Source of the DNA: a virus | Length of the DNA stretch: 36,388 nt | Direction: 5' to 3' (one strand) | IMG/VR virus record: IMGVR_UViG_3300047510_000366 | Coordinates: 1-36,388 of that record | Shown: positions 10,167 to 19,321 of the stretch, one piece after another | Numbering within the stretch: position 1 is the stretch's first letter | How the letters are laid out: each line of letters opens with the position of its first letter | The notes under the pieces: model-generated | Told to the model about the DNA's origin: nothing | The model's database searches: none | What the model saw: the letters and a program-made list of their open reading frames with translations, nothing else | Program-made: the position numbers and the translations under genes

Positions 10167-10343
10167 TTATCCTCCAGTTTTATAGAATCCAGAACCCCTG
10201 AACTGTACAGGGACTGGTGAGTAAACCCTACGCATTAACTCTCCACAAGTTTCGCAGACAGGAAGTACTTCGGGTTCGGTTACAGGCCGAAGTACTTCCG
10301 TAAAGATAGTACATTGCCTGCAATTATATACATATGTTGCCAT
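10167..10343 (-). CDS. FmdB-like zinc-ribbon mini-protein
   Basis: 58 residues starting with ATG 10343 in a TAATG overlap. MATYVYNCRQC and PVCETCG give two CxxC knuckles (Cys8/Cys11 and Cys30/Cys33), and the chain ends VQFRGSGFYKTGG. This is the layout of the FmdB / zinc-ribbon family, where the 'FxGSGFY' tail is characteristic. The family is often called regulatory, but the biochemical role is unknown. The gene contains a 13-bp inverted repeat (10261-10299). Confidence 0.8.
   Translation of the reverse strand: MATYVYNCRQCTIFTEVLRPVTEPEVLPVCETCGELMRRVYSPVPVQFRGSGFYKTGG
10261..10299. repeat. 13-bp perfect inverted repeat inside zinc-ribbon gene
   Basis: GGAAGTACTTCGG (10261-10273) and CCGAAGTACTTCC (10287-10299) are perfect reverse complements around a 13-nt spacer. 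Each arm also contains the palindrome GAAGTACTTC, so the site can be read as two direct copies of one palindrome. It lies in the inter-knuckle coding stretch, so the protein carries a matching EVLRP / PEVLP pseudo-repeat. Confidence 0.75.
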
Positions 10344-11369: not shown

Positions 11370-12156
11370 ATCCTGCTACATCTCCTATCTGCATAGATTC
11401 TGGATGGAATGACAATCGCATATAGTAGTCACCGGACTTGCTTGCTCTACCATAACGATTCTTTACTGGTGCAATACACAAGTAATTGTCATCTCCCATT
11501 TGTTCCTGACCTGTAGTCAGTACCATTGCTGGTACCTGACTCACCTTACCCTGAATAGCAGAGCGTGGCTGGCACGGATTCCCTGCCACGCCTTCTTGTG
11601 TATGGTGCAGAATGAGTACTGCAGCATTAGTATTACGAGCTAGATACTTCAGCTCTTTCATTGCTTGTCTCATTCCACCAAATTCTTCGTAGCCATCCAT
11701 TGCAATATCCATAAGGTTATCGATCACAATCATAGTAGGGCTAGTTCCCCATTGCGTTTCAAACGCAGCAACTTCTTCATCAATATCCTTTAGTGTTGGA
11801 GTTGAATCAAACGACCAGAAGATATGACTTACATTAGCTAATGCCTGTGACGATACGTCTTTCTGTGCATTAAGCATATACTCTGCTTGGACTTGGGTAA
11901 TACCATTGGTCATAGCTAGAGTACGCATTGCCATTGTTCGTGAGTTAGTGTCAGCAGAAAAGTACAATGTAGGAACTGCTAACTTAACTGCAATTGCTAG
12001 TGCTAGTGAGGACTTACCTGCACCTGGTGCACCTGCTATCATTGACAATTCTGATCTTCTAAACACAATGTTATTTTGCTGAAAGACCTTAAAGGCAGGT
12101 GGCAATGGTTCGCCACCCGCCTCGGTCCTGACAGCACTACGCTGCAGAGTTTCCAT
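11356..12156 (-). CDS. DnaB-like replicative helicase / RecA-fold ATPase
   Basis: 266 residues. Walker A GAPGAGKS (42-49), Walker B MIVIDN (142-147) and a sensor-like LILHHTQE (181-188) mark a RecA-fold ATPase. The layout matches the C-terminal motor of DnaB, without the usual N-terminal primase-interaction domain, so it is about half the length of bacterial DnaB. A DNA-helicase role beside the primase and SSB-like genes is likely; a RecA/RepA-type loader is the alternative. The C-terminal APVKNRYGRAS segment (229-239) resembles a DnaB arginine-finger region. Confidence 0.8.
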   Translation of the reverse strand: METLQRSAVRTEAGGEPLPPAFKVFQQNNIVFRRSELSMIAGAPGAGKSSLALAIAVKLAVPTLYFSADTNSRTMAMRTLAMTNGITQVQAEYMLNAQKDVSSQALANVSHIFWSFDSTPTLKDIDEEVAAFETQWGTSPTMIVIDNLMDIAMDGYEEFGGMRQAMKELKYLARNTNAAVLILHHTQEGVAGNPCQPRSAIQGKVSQVPAMVLTTGQEQMGDDNYLCIAPVKNRYGRASKSGDYYMRLSFHPESMQIGDVAGYEVS

Positions 12157-12159
12157 AGA

Positions 12160-12591
12160 TTAACTCGCTACGAATGTGTGCCATTCTGGCATAGATGGAT
12201 AGATGTAAATGTTCTTACACTTATCTGTAGCACCCTTTGGTGCATTACACATATATCCTCGCCAGATTTTACCGTCCTTACCTGTGCCTTGTCGTGCCGA
12301 CATAGCACCATGTACACAGGTTCTACCCCCACCTACCGTTGGAGTAGGGGTTGCCACAACAGTAGCAGCAGGAGTAGAAATTACAGTTGCACCAAAGGTT
12401 TGCTCTAGTGCAGCAACAGCTTCAGGCACAGACATGCCTTCGCCATTGAGCATATCTAGTACAACCTTAACTCCAGGAATATGATATGCCTGAGTCAAGT
12501 TGTTTAGATATTCATCATAGGTATTGCCTCTTACTGTAAAGAGGTCAGCACCATTTATTTTTGTAGTAAATGAAAAGCTTGATTCACTCAC
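12160..12591 (-). CDS. Hypothetical replication-operon protein with C-terminal zinc-ribbon
   Basis: 143 residues from GTG 12591, which overlaps the nuclease TGA (GTGA) and has AAAGGAGAA 7 nt upstream; the frame extends 9 codons further, but that is less likely. The N-terminus (SFSFTTKINGADLFTVRG) is beta-like. A Thr/Pro/Ala-rich linker (about 72-88) leads to a Cys-containing end with CVHGAM, GYMCNAP and DKCKNIY. This layout is common next to helicase genes in actinophages and could bind ssDNA; that role is inference. Confidence 0.7.
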   Translation of the reverse strand: MSESSFSFTTKINGADLFTVRGNTYDEYLNNLTQAYHIPGVKVVLDMLNGEGMSVPEAVAALEQTFGATVISTPAATVVATPTPTVGGGRTCVHGAMSARQGTGKDGKIWRGYMCNAPKGATDKCKNIYIYPSMPEWHTFVAS

Positions 12592-13343
12592 TTGTTTTCT
12601 CCTTTTGGTATATACCATTCACAATGCATTGTATACCCGCACATTCCACAACTATTGGTGTTCGGTATAAAAGCACCAGCCTTTCGGGCGTTGTCAAATG
12701 ATTGGACAAGGTACTCAATCTTCTCTGGTGTGTAGTTGGATAGGTCAACAGGGTCAGTTATAACTGCCTGTCTAGCCATCCAGTACGCACCTTTGTCTAT
12801 CAAGATACCATATTTTTTCCATAGGCCATACCTATAGAAACCTAATTGTAGCGTAGCCTCTGGCGTACGCTTACCTGTCTTGAGGTCTACGATGATTAGT
12901 TCTCCTTGATCATTGACCATTACTCGGTCAAGTATCATCTTAACTATAACACCATTAACGTCAACGTGCATCTCTATTTCAATGGCTGGCACACCGTCTG
13001 GTGTAGTCCATATCTGCCACGCAGAGTGCTCTCTAAATCGCATCCAGTTTGCAATGTATTCTGGACCTGCTTTGTCCCACCATTCTTTATCTTCAGGGTA
13101 ACGAGGGTTCGCTGCACGAATGTTCCCCGGTCCTTTAGATAGAATGGTATCTGTTAAGACTTCTGCTGAATATTTCTCCCAGTATTCTACTGAGAGATCA
13201 GTATATTTATCTATGATTTTTTCTTTCTTAGTAGTTTTCTTGGTAGTTGTCTTAGGCTTTGAAGCTTTCTTTGTCGTACTCTTCCGTGGCTTTATGGAAG
13301 AGGACTCCTCCGAAGAGCCACCAGGCTGGTCTTTCTTTTTCAT
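12588..13343 (-). CDS. Cas4/RecB-type nuclease, C-terminal part (downstream of frameshift)
   Basis: 251 residues if read from ATG 13343, but the first 20 or so codons lie over conserved sequence of the upstream frame and are probably not natural. Motif residues are Asp139 (ILDRV), Asp153-x-Lys155 (IVDLKTG), the QLGFY box (166-170) and three Cys near the end (CGMCGYTMHC). This is the PD-(D/E)XK exonuclease core and Fe-S half of a Cas4-like protein. The matching His and first Cys are encoded upstream in another frame (13252-13446). A Lys/Thr-rich linker (residues 21-45) follows the junction. Confidence 0.8.
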   Translation of the reverse strand: MKKKDQPGGSSEESSSIKPRKSTTKKASKPKTTTKKTTKKEKIIDKYTDLSVEYWEKYSAEVLTDTILSKGPGNIRAANPRYPEDKEWWDKAGPEYIANWMRFREHSAWQIWTTPDGVPAIEIEMHVDVNGVIVKMILDRVMVNDQGELIIVDLKTGKRTPEATLQLGFYRYGLWKKYGILIDKGAYWMARQAVITDPVDLSNYTPEKIEYLVQSFDNARKAGAFIPNTNSCGMCGYTMHCEWYIPKGENK

Positions 13344-13446
13344 GTTTCACCCTACTCAAATAATACATCCATCCACATGATAGATAGTCGTTTAAAGCTG
13401 AATAAGAAATATGCTCAGGCAATTCCTCATTATTAATTTGAATCAT
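13252..13446 (-). CDS. Cas4/RecB-type nuclease, N-terminal part (upstream of frameshift)
   Basis: 64 residues, ATG 13446 with AAAGGGG 4 nt upstream. ISYSALNDYLSCGWMYYL supplies the N-terminal Fe-S Cys24, and LFGGVLFHKATEEYD supplies the His51 motif typical of Cas4/AddB-like nucleases, where the D-DxK motifs should follow. Instead the frame stops at 13252-13254. The rest of the protein continues in the +1 frame (12588-13343). It is most likely one gene interrupted by a one-base insertion, a sequencing or assembly error, or a programmed +1 shift. Confidence 0.75.
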   Translation of the reverse strand: MIQINNEELPEHISYSALNDYLSCGWMYYLSRVKHEKERPAWWLFGGVLFHKATEEYDKESFKA

Positions 13447-13570
13447 ATAACCCCTTTATAGAAGGAAGGGTAGGGTAGAAAGGTATAACATCCCTACCCT
13501 CCCTTCCGTAGTATACTACGAGGCGTGCAGTACAGACAGAACGACACGCCGAGTTGCCCCACCTATTGGA
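13447..13570 (-). promoter_or_regulatory. Structured leader upstream of the nuclease-to-phosphoesterase gene block
   Basis: This 124-nt gap contains three stacked inverted repeats: GGCGTG (13522-13527) with CACGCC (13545-13550); the 14-bp palindrome CGTAGTATACTACG (13507-13520); and a long hairpin between GGAAGGG-type arms near 13465-13507. It ends in the AAAGGGG ribosome-binding site of the nuclease gene. The palindrome contains TATACT, which could be a -10 element, but no -35 match stands out. A terminator-plus-promoter or an operator is possible. Confidence 0.5.
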
Positions 13571-14678: not shown

Positions 14679-14699
14679 TATTTTCCTTTCTAAGGGAGT

Positions 14700-14734
14700 G
14701 ACTGTCCCCCTGTCGCGGAACGAGGGGGACAGTC
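14700..14734 (-). promoter_or_regulatory. 12-bp leader stem-loop upstream of the gene at 14678
   Basis: GACTGTCCCCCT (14700-14711) and AGGGGGACAGTC (14723-14734) pair perfectly around an 11-nt loop. On the minus strand it is followed by ACTCCCTTAGAAAGGAAAATA and the ATG, not by a U-run, so it belongs to the leader family described for this arm rather than to intrinsic terminators. The rest of 14679-14820 holds no gene I can support. Confidence 0.7.
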
Positions 14735-14820
14735 TTATTGCCCAGGGAATGTTGGTATAACTACCTGCGTATCGGAATAAATCCTTAAGCTGGTTCACAT
14801 ACCGTAAGCACAGGGCAAAA

Positions 14821-15399
14821 TCAACCAAGAGTTTTTTCCAGGTTGACATCTTCTTGTATTCTTTCTATTGCTTCATCAGCTGTATCTGAATCAACAAATA
14901 CATCAATACCTACACTAAAGATATTACTTGTAGGTGAGATCATTACATATAGATTGAACGGATACCGAATCACTCCGGTATGTACTTCTTCCATCCATTC
15001 ATTAAAGTCAAGTTTACGACTAACTGTCTCATCAGCCCAACCGGTACTCCAACCTTCAGCAATACGAGTCAATCCCTTGAAGTCTGCAGGTTCAAAGTGA
15101 CCACGCCAACCATCAGTCTTAACCCATTGCCTAAAGTTATTACCCTCTAACTTTTCTTCTAGCCAATCTGGTATGCCATCATCTCCGTATTCATTGTAGA
15201 TAATTAAATCTCCAATGTATAGAAGATCATGACCATCCTCACGATAGCGAGTGAATGTACTAAAGTATTGCGTGTCTGTCTCGTAACATTCATAGCATAT
15301 ATAGTCATCCATTACGGTGCTATATATAATATCAGAGTCTTCAGTAATGATTGAATCACAATCTTTTACTGGACATTTTCTTTCGTCTTGAGTTTCCAA
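14821..15399 (-). CDS. Hypothetical protein with N-terminal zinc-ribbon
   Basis: 192 residues, likely TTG start at 15399 (METQDERKCPVKDCD), overlapping the Api92-like gene by 34 nt. Cys pairs CPVKDC (9, 14) and CYEC (35, 38) suggest a zinc-ribbon at the N-terminus. The rest is Asp/Trp-rich (WSTGWADE, FNEWMEEVH) and ends in a helical acidic segment. The ribosome-binding site is poor, so coupling to the upstream gene is likely. No family recognised. Confidence 0.65.
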   Translation of the reverse strand: METQDERKCPVKDCDSIITEDSDIIYSTVMDDYICYECYETDTQYFSTFTRYREDGHDLLYIGDLIIYNEYGDDGIPDWLEEKLEGNNFRQWVKTDGWRGHFEPADFKGLTRIAEGWSTGWADETVSRKLDFNEWMEEVHTGVIRYPFNLYVMISPTSNIFSVGIDVFVDSDTADEAIERIQEDVNLEKTLG

Positions 15400-16055
15400 T
15401 TTCCCCAGTTCCTTCCTGTCTCATCATCTACCCATTCCCATTCTTCTGGATCAGCAGGGCAATCTCTGAACCAGTCCTGCGTATCTTGCCATTCGCATAT
15501 GCATTCTTGACCACGTTCTTCATAGTCTGCATGTGAATCAGGTACATCATACTCTGTCATGAATAAGCTCTGTCCATCTCTGAATGATTCAGAACCACCC
15601 CAACCATTCTCTTCTTCGTAACTTAATTCGAATAAGAGTTCAGGATATTGTTCCGATAAGTTATACAATGCAGTGATAGGTGTTGACCAAGGTGTAGCAA
15701 ATCTATATGAAACAGCATAGCTATTTTCATATGCATCTTCTGATTCGGATACAAGTTCAACATCACTAACATCCCATTTAGTATCCCAGTTAGCCATATT
15801 CCAGGTATACCAATGGTATTCTGTTTCATCTCCTGCAGGTTGCAAAGAGAAATAAATATCTAACTTATCTTCTGGTGGATGCACAATGTTCCATAAAGAA
15901 AATGGAATCTGTATCTCCACATCTATTTGTGGCAACTTTGGATCAGACCATACGTGTTGCTTCACAGTATATGGTTTAGCCAACTGCTCTTTTAACAAGA
16001 GCACATCATCTTTATATCCAGAGATAGTTAGATCGTTATACATCCAATTAGGCAT
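15366..16055 (-). CDS. Api92-like protein with ferredoxin-like domain
   Basis: 229 residues. The opening MPNWMYNDLTISG, the central WNMANWDTKWD (85-95) and FATPWSTPI (119-127) are hallmarks of the Api92-like phage family, named after a gene of phage APSE-1 and described as ferredoxin-like in fold. Members are often encoded on phages and plasmids; the molecular role is unknown to me. The C-terminal 50 residues are Asp/Trp/Cys-rich (CICEW, DCPADPEEWEW). Starts 8 nt inside the preceding gene. Confidence 0.7.
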   Translation of the reverse strand: MPNWMYNDLTISGYKDDVLLLKEQLAKPYTVKQHVWSDPKLPQIDVEIQIPFSLWNIVHPPEDKLDIYFSLQPAGDETEYHWYTWNMANWDTKWDVSDVELVSESEDAYENSYAVSYRFATPWSTPITALYNLSEQYPELLFELSYEEENGWGGSESFRDGQSLFMTEYDVPDSHADYEERGQECICEWQDTQDWFRDCPADPEEWEWVDDETGRNWGNWKLKTKENVQ

Positions 16056-16296
16056 TGGTTTCCTTTTCCATTTCTAGTGCTGCAACAGCATTACGAATGT
16101 CTGTTGCAATTGAATCGGCAGTTGCTGGCTTGAGAAACAATAAAGTATCTACACTTAGATATTTGAATTCATTGTCTTCATTAATGAAGTGTAATGTTTC
16201 TTGAATTCTTACTTTAATCGTACCTTTATCTATGATCTCAACATTGTAAGAAACATTTTCTGAACCTGCTTGACCGAATGTGCTACTTAAATACAT
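16048..16296 (-). CDS. Hypothetical small protein
   Basis: 82 residues, ATG 16296 behind ACGAAAGGTAAAAT, downstream of an 11-bp stem-loop (16318-16348). The first half is beta-like (ENVSYNVEIIDKGTIKVRIQETLHF), the second a helix ending ALEMEKETNA. Overlaps the Api92-like gene by 8 nt. No family recognised. Confidence 0.65.
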   Translation of the reverse strand: MYLSSTFGQAGSENVSYNVEIIDKGTIKVRIQETLHFINEDNEFKYLSVDTLLFLKPATADSIATDIRNAVAALEMEKETNA

Positions 16297-16317
16297 ATTT
16301 TACCTTTCGTTAATTGT

Positions 16318-16348
16318 GGGGGGTAGTGGCAAGACTACACTACCCCCC
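16318..16348 (-). promoter_or_regulatory. 11-bp leader stem-loop upstream of the gene at 16296
   Basis: GGGGGGTAGTG (16318-16328) pairs with CACTACCCCCC (16338-16348), 9-nt loop. On the minus strand it is preceded by CCCAACA and followed by ACAATTAACGAAAGGTAAAAT then ATG. Same layout as the leaders at 17940 and 18447. A second smaller hairpin, GTTCC/GGAAC, lies just upstream near 16355-16370. Confidence 0.75.
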
Positions 16349-16371
16349 TGTTGGGTTCCGGAAGGGAACGA

Positions 16372-17199
16372 TTATAATCCGTATGACAAATAGTTGTCAA
16401 CAGAATCTCTTGTAAATGCTTTATGCAATGCTATAAAGTTTTTATTAACAATTGCTTGATGCACCAAGGATGATAATGAGTAATCTGTAGCCTCATGTAT
16501 AATTTCTAATGCAGTTTCAGTATTTGGTGTTGGCTCACTAAATATATAACTCAATGCTAAAAATGTTAGGAACAAATCTGAATCACTATCAGTAGGTTCG
16601 GAATGCTTTACCATTGCCCAACCTTCAATCTTGGTTAGGTGTGTAAGTACTGCATCTCTAACGTGTACGGATGCTTTCTCAAGCAATCCACAATTGAATA
16701 CACCTGCAGTCTCTAATGAATACATAAATTCATTGAAGACTTGAGTACGAAATTGTAGTGAATCCTCAACCTCTGTAGTCATAAGCCATTTTTTGAGATC
16801 GCTTCTATCAATATCTACACCGTCTTGTGGACAGCAAGATTCCATTCCGCACAAGAGGCTAGCATACTTGCCTGATGCAGAGATAGCAAGACTATCTGCT
16901 AAGTAAAATGTATCATCTAGCTCTTGATTGCTAGCAAGTGATGCTTGTACTCTTCTTGCTCTACCTCTAGCCATATCTAGATCATCTTCTACTGCATATA
17001 CAACATAACGGAAGTTATCTTCATCTACTACAATTCTAGATGCTTCTTCTTCCGAATAGATTCCAATCACAGAATCTTCCATATCTATAACTGCCACACC
17101 ACTATCATACTGCAGCAATCCACTTTGCTCATTTGCAAAGATAAAGGAAGTAAAGGATTTACATCCTAATGTCTTTATGTTCATTACCAATTGACTCAT
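16372..17199 (-). CDS. Probable DUF4192-family protein
   Basis: 275 residues. KYASLLCGMESCCPQDGVDID (around residues 111-131) closely resembles the CxxxxCCPP-type signature of DUF4192, a family largely confined to actinobacteria and their phages. The N-terminal third has the family's beta pattern with a DSGVAVIDMEDSVIG stretch, and the C-terminal half is helical, ending in DNYLSYGL. Function unknown. Starts in an ATGA overlap with the membrane-protein gene; a GCCTTGC/GCAAGGC hairpin and GGAAAGGAATATAG precede the ATG. Confidence 0.6.
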   Translation of the reverse strand: MSQLVMNIKTLGCKSFTSFIFANEQSGLLQYDSGVAVIDMEDSVIGIYSEEEASRIVVDEDNFRYVVYAVEDDLDMARGRARRVQASLASNQELDDTFYLADSLAISASGKYASLLCGMESCCPQDGVDIDRSDLKKWLMTTEVEDSLQFRTQVFNEFMYSLETAGVFNCGLLEKASVHVRDAVLTHLTKIEGWAMVKHSEPTDSDSDLFLTFLALSYIFSEPTPNTETALEIIHEATDYSLSSLVHQAIVNKNFIALHKAFTRDSVDNYLSYGL

Positions 17200-17369
17200 C
17201 TATATTCCTTTCCGGTGGAGCCTTGCTCGGCACGGAGACGTGCAAGGCGACTATTTAATTTCTCTTGTCTTTCTTTCTCATCTTTTATACCAATGAAAAA
17301 TCCAAAACCATACATAGTAAGGCCAAAGAATATCCATACTCCATAAAATACTAGATCATAAATGTCCAT
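17196..17369 (-). CDS. 57-residue single-span membrane protein
   Basis: ATG 17369 with GAAAGG 8 nt upstream. MDIYDLVFYGVWIFFGLTMY and GFGFFIG form one long membrane helix (about 5-28), followed by a highly charged helix (KDEKERQEKLNSRLARLRAEQ) in the cytoplasm. The TGA overlaps the next ATG. The charged tail is encoded across the stem-loop that precedes the DUF4192-like gene. Possibly a membrane-anchored host-interaction protein; unknown. Confidence 0.65.
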   Translation of the reverse strand: MDIYDLVFYGVWIFFGLTMYGFGFFIGIKDEKERQEKLNSRLARLRAEQGSTGKEYR

Positions 17370-17398
17370 ACCCCATACCTTTCAATAGTTGTATACGC

Positions 17399-17524
17399 CT
17401 AGTGGTCTGCCAAAACGCTCTGGGGGTTGCCCAAAGTTTGTGTTGGACGGTGCCTTGCCTCAGCCATAAGAGCATTATCGGCGGAGCTTGCGGAGCCTTG
17501 ATAATGCATAAGAATGTATTGCAT
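17399..17524 (-). CDS. Possible 41-residue protein
   Basis: ATG 17524 lies 6 nt behind CAGAAAGGA and after an intrinsic terminator (17541-17581). The product begins MQYILMHYQGSASSADNALM. The coding stretch also contains one copy of the CCAACACAAAC box (17436-17446) that elsewhere lies in leaders, so part of this may be regulatory RNA rather than a gene. Weakly supported. Confidence 0.4.
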   Translation of the reverse strand: MQYILMHYQGSASSADNALMAEARHRPTQTLGNPQSVLADH

Positions 17525-17540
17525 AGCAATTCCTTTCTGA

Positions 17541-17581
17541 AAAAATAAAAAAAGGGATACCGAGCCGAAGCCCGGTATCCC
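17541..17581 (-). terminator. Intrinsic terminator after the SSB-like gene
   Basis: On the minus strand GGGATACCG pairs with CGGTATCCC (plus-strand positions 17573-17581 and 17554-17562) and is followed by TTTTTTTATTTTT. This is the clearest rho-independent terminator inside the minus arm. Genes below it need read-through or a promoter between 17370 and 17541. Confidence 0.85.
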
Positions 17582-17588
17582 TCTCATA

Positions 17589-17939
17589 TTATGCACTAAC
17601 TTCATCAACCAATGGTTCAACTGAAGTAACTTCAATAATGTCAATGAACTTTAGCGGTTCACCGTCTTTGCTGGTCTTGCGAGTAACTAATTCACCTACG
17701 ATAACTACATCTTGACCTGCAAACATATCAAACGCTTCTGCAACATATTGGCTAGTAGTGTTCAATACTTTATTAGTAACGAATGCATCGAATGTTTCAC
17801 CTGCATTGTTCTGAACTGACTTTGTAACTCGGATGTTTGCACCTATCCATTTTACCTGTCCATAAGGTGCAACTGCTCTTACACCTTTCTTAGCATCAAC
17901 TGTCAATTTACCTGACAGTGTGATTTCGTTTTTATACAT
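17589..17939 (-). CDS. Single-stranded-DNA-binding-protein-like (OB-fold)
   Basis: 116 residues. MYKNEITLSGKLTVDAKKG, then WIGANIRVTKSV, FDAFVTNKVL and DVVIVGELVTRKTSKDGEPL follow the strand order and the 'kG..v.v.G.l' turn of OB-fold SSB proteins, and the C-terminus is acidic. Position in a replication arm supports ssDNA binding. Sequence similarity is weak, and the usual aromatic DNA contacts are not obvious, so a general OB-fold protein remains possible. Leader with stem-loop and ACTAAGAAAGGTAAG upstream; own terminator downstream, suggesting high expression. Confidence 0.5.
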   Translation of the reverse strand: MYKNEITLSGKLTVDAKKGVRAVAPYGQVKWIGANIRVTKSVQNNAGETFDAFVTNKVLNTTSQYVAEAFDMFAGQDVVIVGELVTRKTSKDGEPLKFIDIIEVTSVEPLVDEVSA

Positions 17940-18007
17940 ACTTACTTACCTTTCTTAGTAGGGAGAGTGGTGCACGAAGTCCCACTCTCCCATAGTTTGT
18001 GTTGGTT
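17940..18007 (-). promoter_or_regulatory. SAS/ESAS-like leader of the SSB-like gene
   Basis: Read on the minus strand: AACCAACACAAAC (18007-17995), then GGGAGAGTGG (17991-17982) paired with CCACTCTCCC (17970-17961) over an 11-nt loop, then TACTAAGAAAGGTAAGTAAGT and ATG. The box and ribosome-binding segment match the leader at 18449-18510 almost base for base, while the stem sequence differs completely. Confidence 0.8.
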
Positions 18008-18446
18008 ACTTACCTTTTCTGTGTGAACAGAACGGTGCTTCTGGGCAAAGCCCTGTCTTGAGCCATACTAGCCAATGTTCTGGACAAGCACTGCTCTTTT
18101 CATCTACGTAATCGTAGTTGACTCCGATTGGTTTCATACCCCAACCGTCTTGAGGATTGTACGAACTTTCCCAAGCCTCACGTGTTTCCATTTCGGTTAC
18201 TTCTGTAACTGAAAGGTCCAATTCAAAGAGGTCTCTTTCGGTGAGAAGGATACCTTCTTTAGTCACAAGGAATCTGCGACGTGCATATAGAATCTCGTAT
18301 GGATGGTCTCCTACGGTTCTATCCCAAGCGTTTGCCAAACGCTCTTCTGCTAGAACTTCTTCGTTCATAGCATCTATCTCTTCGGCTGTCATCTCGTCAA
18401 GAGACTTGACGATTGTAAAGCCAAACGGAATGTATTCGTCTTTCAT
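18006..18446 (-). CDS. Hypothetical early protein
   Basis: 146 residues, ATG 18446 behind ACTAAGAAAGGTAAGA. Acidic N-terminal half (SLDEMTAEEIDAMNEEVLAEE), a basic RRRFLVTKEG patch in the middle, and a Cys/His-containing end (CPEHWLVW, CPEAPFCSHRK) that may bind zinc. No family recognised. The stop codon overlaps the CCAACACAAAC box of the next leader. Confidence 0.65.
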   Translation of the reverse strand: MKDEYIPFGFTIVKSLDEMTAEEIDAMNEEVLAEERLANAWDRTVGDHPYEILYARRRFLVTKEGILLTERDLFELDLSVTEVTEMETREAWESSYNPQDGWGMKPIGVNYDYVDEKSSACPEHWLVWLKTGLCPEAPFCSHRKGK

Positions 18447-18448
18447 TC

Positions 18449-18510
18449 TTACCTTTCTTAGTAGAGACTAGGCTTGTCGCTTGCCCAAGCCTAGTCGGTT
18501 TGTGTTGGTT
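18449..18510 (-). promoter_or_regulatory. SAS/ESAS-like leader of the gene at 18446
   Basis: Minus strand: AACCAACACAAAC (18510-18498), then GACTAGGCTTG (18496-18486) perfectly paired with CAAGCCTAGTC (18476-18466) over a 9-nt loop, then TCTACTAAGAAAGGTAAGA and ATG. No U-run follows, so it is not a terminator. Confidence 0.8.
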
Positions 18511-18631
18511 ATCTATTGTCCAAGAGGTACGCAATACCTACTACGATACCGAACAATAGTGCCATTCCTCCAAGTGCGAGGAAGTATGCGACTGGGTCGT
18601 CATTGAAACAAGAAGCGATAACGGATAACAT
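18509..18631 (-). CDS. 40-residue single-span membrane protein
   Basis: ATG 18631 behind CAACAGAAAGGTAGACATT. The product MLSVIASCFNDDPVAYF continues into LALGGMALLFGIVVGIAYLL, one membrane helix, and ends DNR. Short soluble ends on both sides. The stop lies at the edge of the next leader. Function unknown; phage early membrane peptides sometimes block superinfection, which is speculation here. Confidence 0.7.
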   Translation of the reverse strand: MLSVIASCFNDDPVAYFLALGGMALLFGIVVGIAYLLDNR

Positions 18632-18652
18632 AATGTCTACCTTTCTGTTGGA

Positions 18653-18856
18653 TTAGAAGTAAGGTAGAGACTCGTCGTCATCTACCCATTCTAATTCTTT
18701 GTAGTGGCAACCTAGCAATGCTGGTATTTCACAGCACAGAGGCTCGTCTTGCTTATGTGACAAGCAGAAAAAGATTGGTTCTTCGTGGAACTCGCAGTTC
18801 CAAGCGAATGATGCGTGACGGTCATTGCATATGTCACACATAGGTAAAAAGAACAT
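18653..18856 (-). CDS. Cys/His-rich small protein, first gene of the minus arm
   Basis: 67 residues, ATG 18856 behind ACTAAGAAAGGTTACT. Contains CDICNDRH (Cys7, Cys10, His14), later CEFHEEP and FFCLSHKQ, then LCC; a likely zinc-binding fold with two knuckles. Ends in an acidic DDDESLPYF tail. It is the first gene transcribed leftward from the divergent region, so it is probably made earliest. No family recognised. Confidence 0.65.
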   Translation of the reverse strand: MFFLPMCDICNDRHASFAWNCEFHEEPIFFCLSHKQDEPLCCEIPALLGCHYKELEWVDDDESLPYF

Positions 18857-18977
18857 AGTAACCTTTCTTAGTATGATGCCCTAGTGCCTAGGCATAGGCA
18901 TAATTATTATGATTAATAATTACATCCTCCTCCTGATTGCTAAGGCTATGACAAGGTAGAAGTATGCGAAGCCAACT

Positions 18978-19239
18978 CCATTGCGAAGCAATGGTCGGTC
19001 AAGGGTGAAGCCCTTGCGGGGTAAGGGGCAGAGCCCCTGATTATTCCATTGCGTAGCAATGGCGGGGTCAAGGGCGAGTAGTCCTTGTGGGTCAAGGGCA
19101 AAGCCCTGAGGATAGAATTATATAACCTTATCTGTGTCAAGGTAATGTAAATATTCCTACCAAAATACCCTGCCATTCCGGTAAGAATAATTCCTTGGCA
19201 AGGCCAAGAATCGCCGAAGGTCTGCCCTGCATAGCAGGG
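18978..19239. repeat. Array of short 3-nt-loop hairpins
   Basis: Five compact inverted repeats with 3-nt loops: CCATTGC-gaa-GCAATGG (18978-18994), AGGGGC-aga-GCCCCT (19024-19038), CCATTGC-gta-GCAATGG (19046-19062), AGGGC-aaa-GCCCT (19095-19107) and CCCTGC-ata-GCAGGG (19225-19239). Looser ones lie between, such as AAGGG/CCCTT (19001-19015) and CTTGG/CCAAG (19194-19208). The hairpin units are GC-rich against an AT-rich surround, and two share the same CCATTGC arm. Confidence 0.85.
19112..19140 (-). promoter_or_regulatory. Candidate leftward promoter elements
   Basis: On the minus strand TTGACA (19140-19135) is followed, after only 12 nt, by TATAAT (19122-19117). Both match consensus but the spacing is 5 nt too short for a standard sigma-70 promoter. 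With a 17-nt spacer the -10 would be the poor TTCTAT. Transcripts from here would carry most of the hairpin array as a leader. Confidence 0.25.
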
Positions 19240-19321
19240 TATGACCCGAGGTGATTAATGTACCGCAGTAGTAGGTACGTAATCTCATTCATATTTTTTT
19301 GTGGGTTATATGGGTACAAAA

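What the first reader, a model, noticed from the sequence alone, without database searches (positions are those of the whole stretch)
14679..18910. Repeated leader design: stem-loop plus near-constant ribosome-binding segment before many early genes
Read on the minus strand, the genes starting at 18856, 18446, 17939, 17199, 16296 and 14678 are each preceded by a stem-loop of unrelated sequence (7-12 bp) and then a shared segment around GAAAGG(T/A), fully ACTAAGAAAGGT in three cases. The box CCAACACAAAC precedes two of the stems (18498-18510, 17995-18007) and recurs at 17436-17446; shorter CCAACA copies occur at 18631's and 16296's leaders. The stems differ in sequence but keep structure, the mark of selected RNA or DNA structure. 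Cluster K mycobacteriophages have a comparable arrangement (start-associated sequences with extended inverted-repeat elements); whether this is related is inference.
Basis: partly seen in the sequence, partly recalled or inferred. Interest (0 to 1): 0.78.

Follow-up and report, generated by a model that had tools for sequence, protein, structure and literature searches.

The report
Hairpin leaders before phage early genes
In a freshwater phage of actinobacteria, the gaps between small early genes hold selected RNA hairpins just before ordinary ribosome-binding sites, and the one before the phage's DNA-cutting enzyme belongs to an undescribed RNA element, shared by many lake phages, whose loop can pair with the ribosome-binding site.

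Summary
Partly confirmed. Four of the six named leaders (18446, 17939, 16296, 14678) carry a hairpin far beyond chance. The 17199 stem lies inside a coding sequence and the 18856 stem is not significant. Two leaders were missed: 17524 (a U-tract terminator) and 13446 (the strongest). The shared GAAAGG segment is an ordinary actinobacterial Shine-Dalgarno sequence. CCAACACAAAC occurs three times in this phage; its hits elsewhere are mostly chance or coding sequence.

The hairpins are under selection. Against the closest relative the gaps differ at 2.1% of sites, coding sequence at 10.1%. In more distant relatives orthologous genes keep a hairpin with unrelated but self-complementary arms. Membership in Cluster K SAS/ESAS is rejected.

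The exonuclease leader (13447-13570) has homologues in the closer relatives whose contigs reach it, including cultivated Planktophila phages E7/F5. Stems covary (own arms beat swapped arms in 12 of 12). In most relatives the loop is complementary to the gene's own Shine-Dalgarno over 6-8 nt (window: only 5, not significant). A scan of all Shine-Dalgarno-bearing starts found this almost only before exonuclease genes. No Rfam family matches.

Mechanism (inferred): co-transcribed hairpins that insulate or protect translation starts; in the exonuclease leader, a loop-Shine-Dalgarno switch. Testable with E7/F5.

The parts
18447..18508 (-). Leader C of gene 18446: box CCAACACAAAC 18498-18508, hairpin 18466-18496 (11 bp), SD AAGAAAGG 18452-18459
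   Evidence: beats 500/500 shuffles
17940..18005 (-). Leader D of gene 17939 (small protein, possibly SSB-like by my reading; no family match): box 17995-18005, hairpin 17961-17991 (10 bp), SD 17949-17956
   Evidence: L005 counterpart GGGAGAGGGG/CCCCTCTCCC shows a U-A to G-C double change
17525..17588 (-). Leader E of ORF 17524: hairpin 17551-17584 followed by a U-rich tail (intrinsic terminator type), then SD CAGAAAGG 17532-17539
   Evidence: the two L004 substitutions in its stem keep pairing
16297..16371 (-). Leader G of gene 16296: hairpin 16318-16348 (11 bp), SD ACGAAAGG 16303-16310
   Evidence: orthologues in L005/L006 also have a hairpin leader with unrelated arms (orthology for L006)
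16371..16400 (-). Perfect consensus promoter TTGACA-N18-TATAAT just upstream of leader G
   Evidence: 12 of 12; also present in L004
14679..14820 (-). Leader H of gene 14678: hairpin 14700-14734 (12 bp), SD TAGAAAGG 14685-14692
13447..13570 (-). Leader I, the exonuclease-N leader: hairpin P1 13522-13550, hairpin P2 13461-13506 (15 bp, loop 13476-13491 AUGUUAUACCUUUCUA), SD AAAGGGG 13451-13457, ATG 13446
   Evidence: positional and structural homologue of leaders in L005-L009, L032, L033, L041-L043, L045-L047, L049, L050, L052, L053, L099, L100
18861..18872 (-). ACTAAGAAAGGT (Shine-Dalgarno) of gene 18856; no significant stem in its leader
17220..17248 (-).
17436..17446 (-). Third copy of CCAACACAAAC, inside small ORF 17399-17524, followed by a weak hairpin

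Best explanation
The region is the start of a leftward early operon of a freshwater actinophage. In every gap longer than about 55 nt the polycistronic RNA forms a stable hairpin between one gene's stop codon and the next gene's host-type Shine-Dalgarno (SD) sequence. SHOWN: the hairpins exceed chance, the gaps are conserved, and pairing rather than sequence is kept between phages. INFERRED: most act as intercistronic RNA elements that insulate the next translation start from upstream RNA and ribosomes and protect the downstream message end; the U-tract member (17524) also terminates transcription. The exonuclease leader at 13447-13570 is a specialised case. It belongs to an undescribed leader RNA with a freely varying stem and a pyrimidine-rich loop that in most relatives is complementary to the gene's own SD. 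INFERRED: loop-SD pairing (an H-type pseudoknot) holds exonuclease translation down until a ribosome, phage protein or RNA turnover opens it.
For: Six of six long gaps beat 500 shuffles. Same architecture in L005 and L006. Gaps 10/471 substitutions against 101/1000 in flanking coding, p = 5e-9. Orthologous arms pair best with their own partner. No U-tract after hairpins C, D, G, H, I. Exonuclease leader: own arms beat every swap in 12 of 12 phages, permutation p below 5e-5; in one subfamily covariation 0.192 against 0.135 shuffled, 12 double-change cells against 3.6; 14 G-U against 4 A-C cells, favouring sense-strand RNA; model R1 finds L007, L008, L009 (E 1e-10 to 1e-12) and others not used to build it. 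Loop-SD complement of 7 nt or more: 10 of 23 loci, all but one chance hit before exonuclease-N; 4 of 2519 in control contigs. In E7/F5 both sides differ together (CTCCTGTC:GACAGGAG).
Against: No RNA data. In the window itself the loop-SD match is only CCUUU:AAAGG (5 nt, p about 0.3), and in L007-L009 4-5 nt without G-U pairs. The permutation test of loop against SD over 12 phages is p = 0.07 because most share one loop class. R1 scores the window copy only 11.7 bits, not significant, so its membership rests on position, shape and flanking genes. Leaders C, D, G and H have no SD-complementary loop. Stem-to-SD distance varies in relatives (6-31 nt), which weakens a strict translational role.
Confidence: 0.5

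Rival explanations
1. The hairpins are weak intrinsic terminators (attenuators) that grade expression along the early operon.
For: Hairpins often start 0-14 nt after the upstream stop codon. Some at comparable positions do have U-tracts: window 17584, L006 2833 and 3782.
Against: Hairpins C, D, G, H, I and several in L005 lack a U-tract, and L004 keeps them that way. Leader G follows a perfect promoter, so a terminator there would cut its own transcript.
Confidence: 0.22
2. The hairpins are RNA processing or stability sites: RNases cut near them and the stems protect the resulting ends, as at phage T7 RNase III sites.
For: Position between small early genes and pairing kept without sequence.
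Against: Stems of 10-15 bp are short for classical RNase III sites (from general knowledge); no cleavage data.
Confidence: 0.18
3. Start-associated regulatory repeats as in Cluster K mycobacteriophages (SAS/ESAS), bound by a phage or host protein.
For: Similar placement before a subset of early genes; a shared flank (box plus SD) in two leaders.
Against: SAS absent, Microbacterium EF SAS no more than chance, arms not conserved in sequence.
Confidence: 0.03
4. DNA rather than RNA elements (cruciform, recombination or protein sites).
For: Perfect inverted repeats also exist as DNA.
Against: G-U outnumbers A-C 14 to 4 on the sense strand in the exonuclease family; stems lie on the sense side of gene starts; no shared operator sequence.
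Confidence: 0.05
5. Chance hairpins and chance loop-SD complementarity.
For: The box count is marginal and two of six listed stems fail.
Confidence: 0.02

Closest known systems
SAS/ESAS of Cluster K mycobacteriophages (PMC3203893) and the SAS/ESAS-like motifs of Microbacterium Cluster EF (PMC7302621)
   Same: Repeated elements at or upstream of ribosome-binding sites of a subset of early genes in actinophages; part include inverted repeats.
   Different: There the 13-bp motif and repeat arms have a consensus sequence; here the SD is plain and the stems share no sequence.
Inverted repeats upstream of starts in Microbacterium Cluster EG (and mycobacteriophage Cluster O)
   Same: Short inverted repeats in small intergenic gaps, 14-22 bp before start codons.
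   Different: Those are copies of one sequence (GATCAACCNNGGTTGATC); here every stem is different.
T4/RB69 gene 32 translational operator (PMC535899, PMC3014915)
   Same: Pseudoknot-type leader of a phage DNA-metabolism gene with diverged sequences and similar structure; a model for how the exonuclease leader may work.
   Different: In T4 the repressor is known (gp32); here no ligand is known, and the loop itself is complementary to the SD.
SD-sequestering pseudoknot riboswitches such as preQ1 (PMC11625349)
   Same: H-type pseudoknot arrangement that can hide the SD.
   Different: No Rfam match; no metabolite-related gene.
Phage T7 intercistronic RNase III sites (from general knowledge)
   Same: Hairpins between early genes of a polycistronic phage mRNA.
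   Different: Longer structured sites with known cleavage; not tested here.

Membership tests
Cluster K SAS | 13-bp GGGATAGGAGCCC at the RBS, many copies | tested here: not met
   One 3-mismatch site in 36 kb, 4.1 expected
Cluster K ESAS | 17-bp imperfect inverted repeats sharing a consensus sequence, next to an SAS | tested here: not met
   Arms unrelated between leaders; cross-pairing mostly weak
Microbacterium EF SAS | GGGAAAGGACCCC repeated at starts | tested here: not met
   5 sites with 3 mismatches, 4.1 expected
Intrinsic terminator | GC-rich hairpin directly followed by a U-tract | tested here: not met
   Met only by 17584-17551; C, D, G, H, I not found by the scan
Actinobacterial Shine-Dalgarno | AGAAAGG pairing with the 16S 3' end CCUUUCU, 5-12 nt before the start | tested here: met
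   Positions; the 16S tail itself is from general knowledge
Known Rfam family | Match at or above the gathering score | tested here: not met
   None in window or L042, L043, L049, L052, L053; relaxed searches only below gathering scores
Exonuclease-leader RNA (family defined here) | P2 hairpin directly upstream of the exonuclease start, 14-20-nt loop, covarying arms | tested here: met
   Window copy: 15 bp, 16-nt loop, ATG 13446; arms beat all swaps
Exonuclease-leader RNA (family defined here) | Loop complementary to the gene's own SD over 6 nt or more | tested here: inconclusive
   Met in L005, L006, L032, L033, L041-L043, L047, L049, L050, L052, L053 and L099; window only 5 nt
SD-sequestering pseudoknot switch | Loop-SD pairing forms in RNA and changes translation | not testable with these tools
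   Needs probing and reporters

The most novel reading that the evidence does not exclude
A previously undescribed class of cis-acting leader RNA controls the exonuclease gene of many uncultured freshwater actinophages (split 62-aa exonuclease-N and an unrelated-looking 257-aa exonuclease alike): a freely evolving stem presents a loop that base-pairs with the gene's own ribosome-binding site, switching translation of a DNA-degrading enzyme, while a broader set of sequence-free hairpins insulates the other early genes.
Probability: 0.4. Interest if true: 0.75.

Novelty: new variant of a known kind. Interest (0 to 1): 0.6.

Why it matters
Phages of Nanopelagicales are abundant in lakes and almost nothing is known of how they control their genes. 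The exonuclease leader is a recurrent RNA element in them, with stem covariation and a candidate switch, absent from Rfam, and present in two cultivated phages, so it can be tested directly. It also shows how leader structure can persist with no shared stem sequence, which sequence-repeat searches miss.

Tried and rejected
CCAACACAAAC plus AAGAAAGG as a wider marker: 20 viral stretches, but apart from the same phage species they were exonuclease coding sequence (PNTNNC) or single hits without a stem. DNA similarity of the region to cultured phages: none. SSB-like protein 17939 in phages: none. Rfam: none at gathering scores; the sub-threshold Termite-leu match is taken as chance. GGTTTTGGCTCTCTCC in 257 Gb of bacterial genomes: 87 hits, about 120 expected by chance, so not a host element (expectation computed by hand). 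Window-type loop pattern: four extra hits are coding sequence of unrelated contigs. Distant exonuclease relatives L054, L058, L060, L062 do not show the loop-SD element. MAFFT consensus folding of mixed stems failed by misalignment; replaced by arm-swap tests and a subfamily model.
Full report
WHAT THE WINDOW IS. The window is a 36,388-base virus record, GC 0.41. It encodes terminase, portal and major head protein on the plus strand and, on the minus strand, a PD-(D/E)XK exonuclease, a DnaB-like helicase, a WhiB-like protein, a Toprim primase and a sigma-70 region 4 protein. The best-matching cultured records for the helicase are OX376641 and OX376640 at 57%. These are Planktophila phages LanE43AprF5 and LanE43AprE7, isolated on a freshwater Nanopelagicales actinobacterium (PMC10202952). 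An actinobacterial freshwater host is therefore likely.

THE OBSERVATION. The named stems were measured with a hairpin finder and tested against dinucleotide shuffles. Leaders of 18446, 17939, 16296 and 14678 beat 500 of 500 shuffles. The stem of 17199 lies inside ORF 17369-17196, and that of 18856 is not significant (p = 0.19). Two unlisted leaders, 17524 and 13446, are as strong or stronger. All six gaps longer than 55 nt below gene 18446, down to 13447, hold such a hairpin, while only 5 of 814 coding windows on the same strand do.

THE SHARED SEGMENT. GAAAGG with flanking A is what an actinobacterial 16S tail (CCUCCUUUCU; general knowledge) binds, and it sits 5-12 nt before starts. AAGAAAGG at up to one mismatch is only mildly enriched in the whole record (50 against 37.9). 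I read it as an ordinary Shine-Dalgarno (SD). CCAACACAAAC is a small repeat of this phage: leaders C and D share both flanks around unrelated stems. The third copy lies in a small ORF whose frame is not kept in L004, and hits in other phage groups are mostly coding sequence.

SELECTION ON THE LEADERS. Against L004, a close relative, the five comparable gaps differ at 10 of 471 sites, coding sequence at 472 of 4675, and coding sequence within 100 nt of the gaps at 101 of 1000 (p = 5e-9). Stems have two changes, both in leader E and both keeping the pair. This is one genome pair and part of the contrast may be mosaicism, but the three most diverged flanks still show conserved gaps (1/66, 4/64, 2/75).

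ACROSS RELATIVES. L005 and L006 (helicase 75%) repeat the architecture: stop codon, hairpin, SD, start. Gene 18446 has an orthologue in L006 (E 3e-10) and a weaker match in L005 (E 0.002); 17939 and 16296 have weak but positional orthologues in L006. Arms of orthologous leaders pair best with their own partner, and leader D shows one U-A to G-C double change against L005. The stem-to-SD distance varies and some L006 stems are terminators, so the role of these hairpins is not settled.

THE EXONUCLEASE LEADER. Leader I (13447-13570) precedes the N-terminal half of a split exonuclease. The same position in L005, L006, L032, L033, L041-L043, L047, L049, L050, L052 and L053 carries a strong hairpin with a different stem. 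In many of them the loop is GGUUUUGGCUCUCUCC. That 16-mer hit 105 viral stretches; of the 80 matches read, nearly all lie before an exonuclease, either the 62-aa split type or a 257-aa protein matching phrog_466 exonuclease. In the one type-2 contig examined (L080) a 145-aa protein and the helicase follow, as in the window. In bacterial genomes the 16-mer occurs at chance level, and an L080 leader has no match among cultured phages.

STEM COVARIATION. For twelve representative leaders the cell's own arms pair better than every swapped arm, mean -24.5 against -11.4, permutation p below 5e-5. Within the 257-aa subfamily a 15-pair helix has 95.3% paired cells, 12 double-change cells (3.6 in shuffles) and covariation 0.192 (0.135 shuffled). 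G-U exceeds A-C 14 to 4. A covariance model from that subfamily finds L007, L008 and L009, which were not used to build it, at E 1e-10 to 1e-12, and ten exonuclease-N leaders fetched by exonuclease homology at E 0.0006 or better (some of these loci were later also hit by the loop pattern). It does not significantly match the window (11.7 bits): the window copy is divergent and is assigned by position, shape and neighbours.

LOOP AND SHINE-DALGARNO. Scanning every SD-bearing start in 23 loci for an upstream hairpin whose loop holds at least 7 nt of perfect complement to the SD region gave exonuclease-N in 10 loci and one other, weak hit. In 80 bacterial control contigs 4 of 2519 starts hit. In 78 contigs selected by the loop pattern, 59 of 60 hits are exonucleases, but that set was chosen by loop. 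Three loop/SD classes exist: CUCUCCUU:AAGGAGAG, CUCCUGUC:GACAGGAG (F5; E7 one pair longer) and CCUUUC:GAAAGG (L005, L006). The permutation test over 12 phages is p = 0.07, and the window has only CCUUU:AAAGG. Loop-SD pairing is therefore well supported as a family property, weak for the window copy, and unproven as a mechanism.

COMPARISON. SAS/ESAS and the Microbacterium repeats are defined by conserved sequence; the tested motifs are absent here. Pseudoknot leaders that hide the SD are a known kind of device (T4 gene 32 operator, preQ1 riboswitches), so the exonuclease leader would be a new variant of a known kind with no Rfam entry.

VERDICT.

Noticed in passing
window 13252-13446 and 12588-13343 (-): The exonuclease is split: N-terminal motifs in a 64-aa ORF, the rest in another frame overlapping by about 92 nt (also L005, L006); in L049, L050 and L052 other genes lie between the halves. 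Two subunits or recoding is open.
   Followed up: partly
window 12093-12122 (-): Hairpin inside the start of the DnaB-like helicase gene (within codons 10-27). Its strength exceeds synonymous recodings in 9 of 11 phages tested (p 0.002-0.034), but not in E7/F5.
   Followed up: partly
window 16371-16400 (-): Perfect TTGACA-N18-TATAAT promoter at the end of gene 17199-16372, the only 12 of 12 match in the record; kept in L004.
   Followed up: partly
L032 7525-7597 and L033 11829-11901: A second hairpin plus GACAGGAG leader in phages F5/E7 before a small gene upstream of the helicase; weak match to model R1.
   Followed up: no
window 10261-10299: 13-bp hairpin (GGAAGTACTTCGG/CCGAAGTACTTCC) inside a gene.
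   Followed up: no
L041 1-655, L043 2440-2616, L049 1640-1745, L052 9500-9625, L053 1640-1739: An upstream hairpin P1 with a recurrent CCGTTA or CCGTC loop precedes the exonuclease P2 hairpin; covariation not tested.
   Followed up: no
window 18946-19288: Repetitive, hairpin-rich stretch between the divergent early and late genes (for example CCATTGCTTCGCAATGG) of unknown role.
   Followed up: no
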